A DNA stretch of 34,357 nt from a virus. The stretch covers positions 1-34,357 of IMG/VR virus record IMGVR_UViG_3300032294_002866, one strand, 5' to 3'. Both the position numbers and the translations under genes were made by a program. The notes under the pieces are model-generated. The model saw only the letters and a program-made list of their open reading frames with translations, searched no databases and was not told the origin of the DNA. Below, piece after piece: positions 15,707 to 18,580 of this stretch (its first letter is position 1; each line of letters begins with the position of its first letter).

Positions 15707-15856
15707 ATGTTCCCTAATGAAATAAAAAAGCCGTTCAGGGAGCCGGGGGCGCCCATCCCATCCAAGCCGCCTATCATGCCGGCGCCGCCACCCGCAAATG
15801 CTCCGCCACGCCGGCGGCCACGCCCGCGCGAACGCCCCGATAAAACCAATCCGTAG
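15707..15856 (+). CDS. Possible leaderless 49-aa basic protein
   Basis: A 49-codon frame starting ATG 15707 (MFPNEIKKPFREPGAPIPSK), then Pro-rich and increasingly Arg-rich (NAPPRRRPRPRERPDKTNP). The last ~80 bases are antisense to the repressor 3' end, so part of the composition may reflect that gene. Support: a -35/-10-like pair places the expected start of transcription directly at the ATG. There is no ribosome site. It is listed as tentative and may be only an antisense-transcript by-product. Confidence 0.3.
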   Translation: MFPNEIKKPFREPGAPIPSKPPIMPAPPPANAPPRRRPRPRERPDKTNP

Positions 15857-16046
15857 TAAAGCCGAATTCATCACAAACGCGAGATAGCCAAAGGGGGTCC
15901 GGGTAGTTATCGCCTCGCAGATAGTTGTGTAGCTTATTGGTGGCGATTTGGGTTCGGCGGGCAAATTCAGCCTGGGAAAGCCCAAGCGCATCTATGGCGA
16001 GCCGGAGGTTATTCCCAACGAAGACTTTGTGCGGGGTTGGACTCAT
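15774..16046 (-). CDS. XRE-family phage repressor (90 aa)
   Basis: ATG 16046 yields MSPTPHKVFVGNNLRLAID, followed by a helix-turn-helix of the XRE/CI type (ALGLSQAEFARRTQIATNKL, then HNYLRGDNYPDPLWLSRVCD) and a tail (FGFTTDWFYRGVRAG). It lacks a peptidase domain, so it is a short repressor not expected to be induced by RecA-stimulated autocleavage; another signal would be needed. It is divergent from the Cro-like gene with 84 bases between, and its likely operators flank it on both sides. The assignment as lysogeny repressor is by position and motif. Confidence 0.75.
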   Translation of the reverse strand: MSPTPHKVFVGNNLRLAIDALGLSQAEFARRTQIATNKLHNYLRGDNYPDPLWLSRVCDEFGFTTDWFYRGVRAGVAAGVAEHLRVAAPA

Positions 16047-16130: not shown

Positions 16131-16343
16131 ATGTCTGATCCTCTCTCTCGTGCAATTGAAGCTACTGGTGGTCTGCAAGCCTTCATTGGGGGGCTTGGGA
16201 TTTCCCGCAGAACCCTGGCGGATTGGCGCCGTTTCGGCGTGCCCGATACCCGGTGCCTTGCGGTTGAAAAGGCGGCGAAGGGCGCTGTGACGGCCCAGGA
16301 ATTGGCTGTGGATCGAGTGCAGCGCTTGCGGGGTGCCGCCTAA
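16131..16343 (+). CDS. Cro/YdaS-like regulator (70 aa)
   Basis: The first rightward gene after the repressor. The product, MSDPLSRAIEATGGLQAFIG, then LGISRRTLADWRRFGVPDT and RCLAVEKAAKGAVTAQEL, has the YdaS/Cro antitoxin-type helix-turn-helix. Phages use such a protein to shut the repressor promoter and favour lytic growth. No Shine-Dalgarno precedes ATG 16131, in agreement with a leaderless transcript. The stop lies two bases from the stop of the opposing membrane module. Cro function is inferred from position. Confidence 0.7.
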   Translation: MSDPLSRAIEATGGLQAFIGGLGISRRTLADWRRFGVPDTRCLAVEKAAKGAVTAQELAVDRVQRLRGAA

Positions 16344-16345
16344 TG

Positions 16346-16819
16346 TCATTGGGGCGCTACGATGGTGCCAGGGCTGGTGGCCGCGCGGGCACAAAGGTCC
16401 GCGAAGTAATGGTGGATTTCGCCCCGAAAGCGCAGCGGTTCTTCCTGGCTGGGCAGGTACAGCGTTTGAATTCGGTGCACCATGAAGGTGCGGTAGCCCC
16501 GGCGCAGGTGGCAGAAGGCACGCATTTTGGAAGGGTGATATCGGCCCTCCGCGTCTCTCGTGGCGTCAAGCTGGATGATGGAAATCTGGCGCTCTGTCAG
16601 CACTCCGAAGGCGTCGGCATATTCCATGCGCAGCCGGGCCATTGCCTTGTCCGGCGGCGGAATGGTCCGCGCCAGGCGCTGGCGTCTTTTCGGGGGTGCC
16701 TCTCCGATTCTTTCCCTTTGGCGCGCTTGGCCGTTTTCCCGGCGGCGCGCCTTCAGGCTGACCACAAGGATCAGCCCGATGAAAAGAATGGTGAAAAAGA
16801 CGGCGGCGCCGCTGCTCAT
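16346..16819 (-). CDS. Membrane-anchored WYL-like protein (157 aa), candidate moron
   Basis: One N-terminal membrane span (AAVFFTILFIGLILVVSL, residues ~5-22) is followed by a strongly basic stretch (KARRRENGQARQRERIG). From ~78 to 125 there is a WYL-like small beta domain (RQISIIQLDATRDAEGRYHP, then MRAFCHLRRGYRTFMVHRIQ); the 'CHLRRGYRTFMVHRI' core is the giveaway. WYL domains bind nucleic acid or a ligand and regulate defence systems. The membrane anchor on one is unusual. It is opposite in direction to its surroundings and ATGA-coupled to 16816. Role: perhaps lysogenic conversion or superinfection exclusion; inference only. Confidence 0.6.
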   Translation of the reverse strand: MSSGAAVFFTILFIGLILVVSLKARRRENGQARQRERIGEAPPKRRQRLARTIPPPDKAMARLRMEYADAFGVLTERQISIIQLDATRDAEGRYHPSKMRAFCHLRRGYRTFMVHRIQTLYLPSQEEPLRFRGEIHHYFADLCARAATSPGTIVAPQ

Positions 16820-17295
16820 TTGGTGTTGCCGCGCGCGCGGCGTTCCGCTTCTTCGGCGGCCAGTTTTGCCTCGGCGGCGGCGCGCGCGGCGCGTTCCGCC
16901 TTCAAGTCTTCTTGCGCCTTCAGTGTTTTCAGCCGCGATGTTTCTCGCGAAATGATTTCCTCATCGCGCGTGCGGGGTAGCGCATCAGGCCGTGCCCGCT
17001 GGAATTGGCGGATGGTGAAGCCAAGCGAAAGCAGCGCCATGATTCCCCCGAAGCCCGCCGCCAGAAGCTGGCCCATGTGCCAATCGGCCACGGGTTGCGG
17101 GCAGTCACCCCAGACGCGCCCGGCCACGGCTTGGCCGGCTGCCCAGGTGGTGCATGCCGCGAAATGCTCCATCCGCTTCGTGGGGTCGATCGGCGCGTTG
17201 ATTGCTTGGTGCAGCGTAGTTGCTGACAGGATGGTCAGAATGACCGTGAGCACCAAGGCTAACCAGGCCACGGTGCGATCCATTGATTTATCCAT
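16816..17295 (-). CDS. Two-span membrane protein with C-terminal coiled coil (159 aa), candidate moron
   Basis: ATG 17295 is preceded by GGGAA; an ATG four codons later (17283) is an alternative. Membrane spans lie near residues 8-27 (TVAWLALVLTVILTILSATT) and 76-95 (QLLAAGFGGIMALLSLGF). Between them is a loop of about 47 residues containing two Cys (C48 and C65) that may face the periplasm. The tail, ~105-157, is a charged coiled coil (LKTLKAQEDLKAERAARAA, then EAKLAAEEAERRARG). It heads a two-gene leftward module. Topology resembles small sensor or exclusion proteins, but no family is recognised. Confidence 0.6.
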   Translation of the reverse strand: MDKSMDRTVAWLALVLTVILTILSATTLHQAINAPIDPTKRMEHFAACTTWAAGQAVAGRVWGDCPQPVADWHMGQLLAAGFGGIMALLSLGFTIRQFQRARPDALPRTRDEEIISRETSRLKTLKAQEDLKAERAARAAAEAKLAAEEAERRARGNTK

Positions 17296-17307
17296 GATGT
17301 TGATTCC

Positions 17308-17377
17308 CTTCCCGTTCCTTTTCGGGAAGCGGATCATATTCGCCGGCGCAACGCAAATCAGCGGGAAGCCTTCCCGC
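17308..17377. promoter_or_regulatory. Paired palindromes around a candidate -10 for the membrane module
   Basis: Two dyads share the half-site CGGGAAG: CTTCCCG-N8-CGGGAAG at 17308-17329, and CGGGAAG-C-CTTCCCG at 17362-17376 inside the larger GCGGGAAG/CTTCCCGC palindrome 17361-17377. Between them on the minus strand is TATGAT (plus 17333-17338), a good -10 without a clear -35. Such an arrangement would suit control of the leftward membrane module, the rightward CII-like gene, or both. Confidence 0.45.
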
Positions 17378-17397
17378 GCCATTCATGGGGGGAAAGC

Positions 17398-17850
17398 ATG
17401 AATTTGGCCTCGGCTGATGGTATCGGCCTGAAGACAGTCACGCGCGCCTTGGTGCAGGCCTGTGGCGGGGTGGAAGCGGGCAGCGCTGCGGCGCGGCTTT
17501 CCAAAACCAGCCTGGCCGCGTGTTATGATCCGCATACGCCAGACCGCTTCATGCCAATTGATTGCATGCTGGCGCTGGAACGTGCGGCGGGTGATCCGGT
17601 GCTCACGCGCCACCTGGCGGCGTTGCAGGGTTTTGCGCTGGTTCAGCAGGCGGCGCTGGGTGGGGATTTCATCAGCCAGGTGGTGAAGCTTTCCCGCGAA
17701 TATGGGGAGCTCAGCGCGGCATTCGCGCAGGCCCATGCGGATGGGAAGCTTTCGGCGGAAGATTTCCAGGGGCTGGCGCTGGAAGCGCTGCAGGTGGCGG
17801 GGTTGGCCATGTCTGTTGCTGCCATCGCCAAGGAAAGGGCGGCGGCATGA
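17398..17850 (+). CDS. CP76/CII-type phage regulatory protein (150 aa)
   Basis: ATG 17398 follows a GGGGGGAAAG ribosome site. The sequence MNLASADGIGLKTVTRALVQ, then ACGGVEAGSAAARLSKTSLA and PDRFMPIDCMLALERAAGDP is characteristic of the phage regulatory CII (Phage_CP76) family, with a helix-turn-helix in the first half. The second half (GGDFISQVVKLSREYGELSA, then LSAEDFQGLALEALQVAGLA) is helical and may mediate multimerisation. Members tune the lysis-lysogeny choice. It lies downstream of the opposing membrane module and is coupled to the next small gene by ATGA. Confidence 0.75.
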   Translation: MNLASADGIGLKTVTRALVQACGGVEAGSAAARLSKTSLAACYDPHTPDRFMPIDCMLALERAAGDPVLTRHLAALQGFALVQQAALGGDFISQVVKLSREYGELSAAFAQAHADGKLSAEDFQGLALEALQVAGLAMSVAAIAKERAAA

Positions 17851-17960
17851 AGGCGCGGTTTTGGCGGATGGTGGAAAGCGCGCTGCGCAGCGTTGGTTTC
17901 GCGGTGCTGGATGCTTCGGATTGGGCTGATCGCCGGGCGCGGAAGGCGCGGCGCGCATGA
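17847..17960 (+). CDS. Basic microprotein (37 aa)
   Basis: A 37-codon frame starting ATG 17847, overlapping its upstream and downstream neighbours as ATGA. The product is MKARFWRMVESALRSVGFAV then LDASDWADRRARKARRA, with an amphipathic or weakly hydrophobic front and a basic end. No family. The double coupling and lack of a gap support translation. Confidence 0.5.
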   Translation: MKARFWRMVESALRSVGFAVLDASDWADRRARKARRA

Positions 17961-18580
17961 GTGGCGAAAAATGGCCTCAGCCGAAGGATGATCTGCTGCG
18001 CCAGCTTTGGCTGCGTGGGGATACCAGCACGCAAATTGCGCAGCACATGGGTATCACGAAAAACGCCGTGGTGGGCAGGGCGCATCGGCTGCGCCTGCCT
18101 GCGCGCCCTTCGCCTATCAAGGTGGGGCAGCGGCAGAATAGCGCGCCGCGCCATGGGGGTGTTGTGGTGCGGCGCGCGGCGGCGGGTGTTGTCATTCCTC
18201 CGGCGCCCGCCGCCACAACAAGCTTGGGCGCCACGGGTGCCCCAAGGCCGGGCGCGGCGGCTTTCTCCGCGCAGCATGACGTTTCCTCCCTGTCCAACTT
18301 CCCCGCGCTGGCGGCGCGCTTAACGAACCCGTCGCCAGCGCGGGGCTTTTTGGATGGGGCAGAGGCGAAGCGGGAAAAGGCGGCGGCGCAGCCCAGGCCG
18401 CAGGTGTTTCAGGTGCGGGGCTGTCAGTTTCCGTTGTGGCCGCATGGGGTGCGCGTGGCGCTGGAAAATATGCGCTTCTGTGATGCGGCCCCGCGACGCA
18501 ACAAGGAAGGCCGTCAGGATAGCGCGTATTGCGAAGCGCATCATGCGCGGTGTTTTGCCAAGATGAAGGAAGCGGCGTGA
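17957..18580 (+). CDS. GcrA-family cell cycle regulator (207 aa)
   Basis: The N-terminus, DLLRQLWLRGDTSTQIAQHM then GITKNAVVGRAHRLRLPARP, is the GcrA DNA-binding domain. A long Ala/Pro linker leads to the conserved C-terminal part with its Cys/His set: CQFPLWPHGV, then MRFCDAAPRRN and DSAYCEAHHARCF. GcrA binds RNA polymerase sigma factor and methylated GANTC sites in Caulobacter and relatives. Phage copies are thought to redirect host transcription. Its presence is a strong pointer to an alphaproteobacterial host. ATGA-coupled upstream; the next start overlaps the stop. Confidence 0.85.
   Translation: MSGEKWPQPKDDLLRQLWLRGDTSTQIAQHMGITKNAVVGRAHRLRLPARPSPIKVGQRQNSAPRHGGVVVRRAAAGVVIPPAPAATTSLGATGAPRPGAAAFSAQHDVSSLSNFPALAARLTNPSPARGFLDGAEAKREKAAAQPRPQVFQVRGCQFPLWPHGVRVALENMRFCDAAPRRNKEGRQDSAYCEAHHARCFAKMKEAA

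What the first reader, a model, noticed from the sequence alone, without database searches (positions are those of the whole stretch)
16346..17295. Leftward membrane module with an anchored WYL-like domain and a coiled-coil partner
Two ATGA-coupled genes run against the early rightward genes. One product joins a single membrane span, a basic linker and a WYL-like domain. The other has two spans, a Cys-containing loop and a long coiled coil. Such oppositely oriented insertions are often expressed from the lysogen and alter the host. A membrane-tethered WYL sensor with a partner that could signal across the membrane has no precedent known to me and may be a superinfection-exclusion or prophage-sensing system.
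Basis: inference. Interest (0 to 1): 0.65.

Follow-up and report, generated by a model that had tools for sequence, protein, structure and literature searches.

The report
Membrane-tethered WYL gene in phage immunity region
Between two control genes of a temperate phage of acetic-acid-type bacteria lie two small membrane-protein genes, one carrying a nucleic-acid-sensing (WYL) domain; the same kind of WYL gene recurs at the same spot in many related prophages, which hints at an undescribed lysogen-protection or lysogeny-sensing gene.

Summary
Two real leftward genes, overlapping by ATGA, lie between cro and cII of a temperate phage; its nearest cellular relatives are prophages in Roseomonas MAGs. 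A (157 aa) is one N-terminal span, a basic linker and a WYL domain. B (159 aa) has two spans, a loop with an invariant Cys and a charged helical tail. The A+B signalling pair is not supported: B occurs without A in six relatives, and A occurs with a lipoprotein in place of B. What is new is the position. WYL proteins lacking a winged helix lie repeatedly in this exact slot: tail-to-tail with cro, reading towards cI, cII/gcrA upstream. Strict count: 10/18 against 0/31 control WYL loci. Arginines that contact ssDNA in other WYL proteins are the family's invariant residues; A keeps four of five. Best reading: A is a nucleic-acid sensor held at the inner membrane, co-expressed with cI, an accessory gene protecting the lysogen; lysogeny control is the main rival. 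Mechanism is inferred. B is a separate, exchangeable envelope protein.

The parts
16346..16819 (-). Gene A: 157-aa protein, N-terminal membrane span, basic linker, WYL domain; ATG overlaps the stop of B (ATGA)
16754..16810 (-). membrane span of A (residues 4-22), basic residues after it, so the WYL domain should face the cytoplasm
   Evidence: hydropathy; helix 3-39 in the AlphaFold model
16460..16642 (-). WYL domain of A (about residues 60-120); keeps Y67, R77, C103, R106, R110, F112, R116; has M113 where other WYL proteins often have Arg
16816..17295 (-). Gene B: 159-aa two-span membrane protein, loop with invariant Cys48, charged helical C-terminal tail of variable length
17296..17397 (.). 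102-bp divergent gap between B and cII with two inverted repeats (17308-17329 and 17361-17377); candidate leftward establishment promoter (pRE-like)
   Evidence: promoter reading is inference (one search found no sigma-70 consensus here; one search found one at the same place in L019)
16131..16343 (+). Cro/YdaS-like HTH gene, tail-to-tail with A (2-bp gap)
15774..16046 (-). cI-like HTH repressor, same strand as B and A, next gene downstream on that strand
17398..17850 (+). CII-like activator (phrog_101, E 7e-16; Phage_CP76, E 1.5e-4, below cut-off)
17957..18580 (+). GcrA-like regulator (PF07750), a neighbour of cII in this phage group
9745..10770 (-). tyrosine integrase (PF00589): the phage is temperate

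Best explanation
The window is a temperate phage whose lambda-type immunity region (cI leftward; cro, cII, gcrA rightward) carries a leftward accessory cassette, B-A, in the slot between cro and cII. SHOWN: both genes are under protein-level selection. A is a membrane-anchored WYL protein whose nucleic-acid-contact residues are mostly kept. WYL genes lacking a winged helix occupy the same slot (3' end against the 3' end of cro, reading towards cI) in many diverse Acetobacteraceae prophages and in phiAP1. The gene in front of A is exchangeable (B or a lipoprotein). INFERRED: B and A are transcribed with cI from a CII-dependent establishment promoter in the B-cII gap. A sits in the inner membrane with its WYL domain in the cytoplasm, binds single-stranded DNA or RNA (or a derivative) such as that of an incoming or replicating phage, and thereby helps protect the new lysogen (superinfection exclusion or abortive defence). 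B and the alternative lipoproteins are separate small envelope proteins, most simply entry-blocking factors.
For: Coding. WYL identity: (PADLOC WYL models, 1e-8 to 4e-5). The only PDB sequence matches of the A profile are WYL proteins CapW and BrxR (E 0.18-0.95); the wider family also finds Pif1-WYL, PafBC and CapW (3e-7 to 9e-4). The ssDNA-contact residues that PMC9964779 lists for DdPif1 (R464, R491, R495, R498, R501) fall on A R77, R106, R110, M113, R116 in the alignment; R77, R106 and R110 are invariant in 12 diverse members and R116 is kept in 11. Slot: (Pfam confirms HTH/cI/cro/CII neighbours). Strict Fisher test 10/18 against 0/31, p=5e-6. Exchangeability. Two-bp A-cro spacing leaves no room for a terminator. 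Literature for WYL binding ssDNA: PMC11804915 (PafBC), PMC9964779 (Pif1; cites DriD).
Against: No expression, binding or phage-challenge data exist. M113 of A replaces one of the two arginines whose joint loss abolished ssDNA binding in PafBC (PMC11804915). A has no effector domain, so how sensing would give protection is unknown. A is absent from 12 of 17 phages of this group, so it is dispensable. The AlphaFold model of A has only 4 sequences and pLDDT 64, and no fold match. The promoter reading rests on a short palindrome and geometry.
Confidence: 0.42

Rival explanations
1. Lysogeny control: the WYL protein senses ssDNA or another damage- or replication-linked ligand and tunes the CI/Cro/CII decision or prophage induction, a phage counterpart of DriD/PafBC signalling held at the membrane.
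For: Strictly fixed position in the cI-cro-cII region in diverse prophages; ssDNA-contact arginines are the invariant residues; known WYL regulators answer DNA damage (PMC11804915).
Against: A is not tied to one repressor: it occurs with two unrelated cI/cro types (window/L002/L021 versus L003/L019), and the window cI type also occurs without A (L017, L029, L031, L034). No DNA-binding domain. Most sister phages lack it.
Confidence: 0.3
2. One reading: A and B form one transmembrane signalling complex (B relays across the membrane, A senses).
For: ATGA overlap in window, L002 and L003; both are predicted inner-membrane proteins.
Against: B without A in six relatives; A with a lipoprotein instead of B in Roseomonas prophages; A 100% identical between window and L002 while B is only 66%. 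No B in 299 Acetobacteraceae genomes, some of which have WYL in the slot (no positive control).
Confidence: 0.08
3. Loose cargo: A and B are unrelated genes in a permissive slot, with roles in host envelope or metabolism unrelated to phages.
For: Slot content is exchangeable: two-span proteins, lipoproteins, WYL, or two copies of B.
Against: The WYL domain recurs at the same place far more often than chance, and WYL biology points to nucleic acids.
Confidence: 0.15
4. The cassette acts mainly as RNA: leftward transcription gives antisense to cro, and the encoded proteins matter little.
For: Genes end against the cro 3' end with almost no gap.
Against: dN/dS 0.20-0.50 for both genes among close relatives.
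Confidence: 0.05

Closest known systems
WYL-domain proteins (PF13280); nearest solved: Pif1 C-terminal WYL (8bnv, 8bns), PafBC (6sj9), CapW (7tb5, 7tb6), BrxR (7t8k)
   Same: Same domain by profile; same conserved Y, R, C, R, R, F, R pattern
   Different: No winged helix or helicase; membrane anchor instead; very little C-terminal extension; M113 in place of one ligand-site Arg; the W-Y-L residues themselves are not kept
Acetobacter phage phiAP1 PhiAP1_190 'WYL domain protein' (LC644972) and Komagataeibacter phage phiKM1 PhiKM1_140 (LC644974)
   Same: Membrane spans plus WYL; gene in the same slot, same strand as cI; both phages are mitomycin C-inducible temperate phages
   Different: Two spans instead of one; low identity in the WYL domain; the paper (PMC8566455) does not discuss the gene
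Yersinia P2-like phage vB_YenM_201.16 hypothetical protein UNA05945
   Same: Membrane spans plus WYL, next to cI on the same strand
   Different: Lies between cI and integrase, unrelated phage family
Prophage superinfection-exclusion proteins of lysogeny modules (Ltp of TP-J34, PMC3952083)
   Same: Small membrane or lipid-anchored product encoded among lysogeny genes; sister phages have lipoproteins in this slot
   Different: A and B have no lipobox; homology was not tested; no phenotype known
Lambda rexA/rexB (from memory, a lead only)
   Same: Two accessory genes read with cI, one proposed to sense DNA, one in the membrane
   Different: Different position (downstream of cI); homology not tested

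Membership tests
WYL domain (PF13280) | Sequence profile match | tested here: met
   E 3e-4 and 21.1 bits (0.7 bit under the cut-off) for A, all 4 homologues match; hhalign 96.7% to YafY-type WYL
WYL domain (PF13280) | Conserved basic residues and Cys lining the ligand groove (PMC4012209, PMC9122588) | tested here: met
   Y67, R77, C103, R106, R110, F112 invariant in 12 diverse members, R116 in 11; M113 is a departure
[quoted passage not shown]
   AlphaFold strand order fits but pLDDT 64 with 4 sequences; no significant fold match
Winged-helix WYL transcription factors (CapW, BrxR, PafBC, YafY) | N-terminal DNA-binding wHTH | tested here: not met
   N-terminus is a membrane span; no HTH family hit, while 26 of 31 control WYL proteins match HTH_11
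Nucleic-acid-binding WYL proteins | Binds ssDNA or RNA | not testable with these tools
   Inferred from residues only
Lambda-type immunity region | Leftward cI, rightward cro then cII, integrase present | tested here: met
Superinfection-exclusion lipoproteins (Ltp, Llp, Cor type) | Lipobox / lipid anchor | tested here: not met
   A and B sequences have no lipobox (by eye); sister phages do encode lipobox proteins in the slot
Superinfection-exclusion systems | Protects lysogen from phage | not testable with these tools
   needs a phage challenge
Known defence systems (PADLOC) | Match to a defence-system component other than through WYL | tested here: not met
   only WYL-containing models hit A; none hit B

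The most novel reading that the evidence does not exclude
A class of temperate-phage genes not described in the library searched: membrane-tethered WYL proteins, fixed between cro and cII, that sense nucleic acid at the inner membrane during establishment of lysogeny and either exclude superinfecting phages or steer the lysis-lysogeny choice.
Probability: 0.35. Interest if true: 0.78.

Novelty: new variant of a known kind. Interest (0 to 1): 0.55.

Why it matters
WYL proteins are known as transcription factors and accessory subunits of host DNA-damage and defence systems. A recurrent, mostly membrane-anchored form built into the immunity region of temperate phages suggests that phages use the same nucleic-acid sensor for their own lysogeny or exclusion. 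The question is directly testable in phiAP1, an inducible phage with a published cured host (PMC8566455).

Tried and rejected
Antisense ORF 16343-17401 (+) as the real gene: rejected by substitution pattern. Genome-contig scan with A: nothing, because the patterns chosen were poor; family-wide profile searches succeeded later. B: no family, weak holin-like and COX4 hits only; no homologue in 299 Acetobacteraceae genomes (no positive control). Fold search with the A model: low-confidence matches, meaningless, WYL chains not listed. Sigma-70 scan of the window gap: none. Viral scans with phiAP1 and L082 WYL proteins: one near-copy and none. The 12-member WYL alignment A7 was too diverse for a viral scan. 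Upstream partner genes in the genome loci could not be called reliably, apart from a lipoprotein in L068/L048. Stenotrophomonas phage hits are small WYL proteins next to DNA primase in lytic-type phages, a different context.

Full report
Check of the observation. A (16346-16819, -) and B (16816-17295, -) are present as described and overlap by ATGA. They run against cro, cII and a GcrA-like gene and on the same strand as a cI-like repressor. Comparison with relatives shows both are protein-coding: dN/dS is 0.25 for A (window/L003) and 0.20 for B (window/L006 and L007), whereas the long antisense frame gives values above 1.2 in the same pairs. Hydropathy gives one span in A and two in B. The phage is temperate: integrase, lambda-type portal and gpA-type terminase are present.

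What A is. Pfam WYL matches at E=3e-4 (21.1 bits, cut-off 21.8), all four A homologues match, PADLOC WYL models match at 1e-8 to 4e-5, and a profile comparison with YafY-type WYL domains gives 96.7% (B as negative control 0.2%). The only PDB sequence matches of the A profile are CapW and BrxR, each weak. A wider profile of 12 diverse WYL proteins that lack a winged helix finds Pif1-WYL, PafBC and CapW at 3e-7 to 9e-4. Aligned to DdPif1, whose WYL arginines R464, R491, R495, R498 and R501 are modelled on ssDNA (PMC9964779), A has R77, R106, R110, M113 and R116. Y67, R77, C103, R106, R110 and F112 are invariant in the 12 members and R116 is kept in 11. The AlphaFold model has the expected strand order but low confidence, and fold searches were uninformative.

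Relatives of the phage. In 17 non-redundant phages or prophages with a readable slot (window included), the leftward slot between cII and cro holds B alone (L006, L007, L009, L017, L018), B twice (L008), B then A (window, L002, L003), a lipoprotein then A (L019/L020, L021, Roseomonas MAGs) or one or two lipoproteins (L029-L032, L034, L036). A is 100% identical between window and L002 while B is 66% identical; A is 84% identical in L003, where cI, cro and B are all divergent. So A, B and the repressor type recombine independently. This argues against an obligate A-B complex and against A being the partner of one repressor.

The slot elsewhere. A family-wide search found many WYL proteins in Acetobacteraceae. 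Those without a winged helix are mostly membrane-anchored: for example L064/L082 (144 aa, one span, WYL above the Pfam cut-off), L048, L049 and L053. Most of those loci lie in prophage-type immunity regions. With profiles for cI-type HTH, cro-type HTH and cII, 10 of 18 independent loci have such a neighbour within about 1.3 kb, against 0 of 31 control WYL loci (mostly HTH_11-WYL, two PIF1-WYL); Fisher p=5e-6. Loci used to build the profiles and near-duplicates were left out of this count. Pfam confirms HTH, peptidase S24, YdaS and CII families for neighbours in independent loci. The geometry is constant: WYL, then cro on the other strand usually starting 3-81 nt after the WYL end, then cI on the WYL strand; cII and/or gcrA upstream on the cro strand where seen. 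The mitomycin C-inducible phages phiAP1 and phiKM1 have the same order (PMC8566455 does not mention WYL). A Yersinia P2-like phage has a two-span WYL protein between cI and int.

Regulation. The 102-bp gap between B and cII holds two inverted repeats (17308-17329, 17361-17377; two such repeats arise in about 2% of mononucleotide shuffles). In the other cII clade a similar repeat abuts a sigma-70-like promoter pointing leftward (ATGACA-17-CATATT). No sigma-70 site was found in the window. A pRE-like, CII-dependent leftward promoter giving B-A-antisense cro-cI is therefore an inference from position, supported by the lack of room for a terminator between A and cro.

Mechanism. The most economical reading is an accessory cassette of the lysogeny operon: small envelope proteins at the first position, and at the second a WYL nucleic-acid sensor held at the inner membrane. 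WYL domains bind ssDNA in PafBC (PMC11804915) and Pif1 (PMC9964779) and are linked to defence (PMC4012209, PMC9122601). Protection of the lysogen is my first choice; control of lysogeny or induction is the main rival. The binding, the topology and the phenotype are all untested.

Novelty. Literature searches for WYL with prophage, Cro/CI repressor, immunity region or membrane anchor gave no report of this association (only open-licence papers are held). The domain is known and phiAP1's gene was annotated as WYL, so I class it as a new variant of a known kind.

Noticed in passing
L029, L030, L031, L032, L034, L036: Sister phages fill the same leftward slot with one or two lipobox proteins (MLKPITAAALGLTLMGC...), candidates for superinfection exclusion lipoproteins; no Pfam family.
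   Followed up: partly
L008:8001-8858: Tandem pair of B-type two-span proteins (the second about 33% identical to window B) in the slot instead of B-A.
   Followed up: no
window 17957-18580: Phage-borne GcrA-like cell-cycle regulator directly after cII, kept throughout this phage group; could tie phage expression to host methylation state.
   Followed up: no
L153:4659-5216 (Yersinia phage vB_YenM_201.16): Two-span WYL protein between cI and integrase of a P2-like phage, annotated hypothetical.
   Followed up: partly
L152:5887-6252 (phiKM1): WYL gene annotated as 'YafY' with a start that cuts off its membrane spans (open frame is 169 aa), and an unannotated cro-like ORF between it and cI.
   Followed up: partly
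L154:3992-4201 (Stenotrophomonas phage Ptah and relatives): Very small WYL-like proteins encoded just before DNA primase in Autographiviridae-type phages.
   Followed up: no
window 17361-17377: Palindrome GCGGGAAGCCTTCCCGC just upstream of cII, with a counterpart GCGGAANNNTTCCGC in the divergent cII clade; possible CII or repressor operator.
   Followed up: partly
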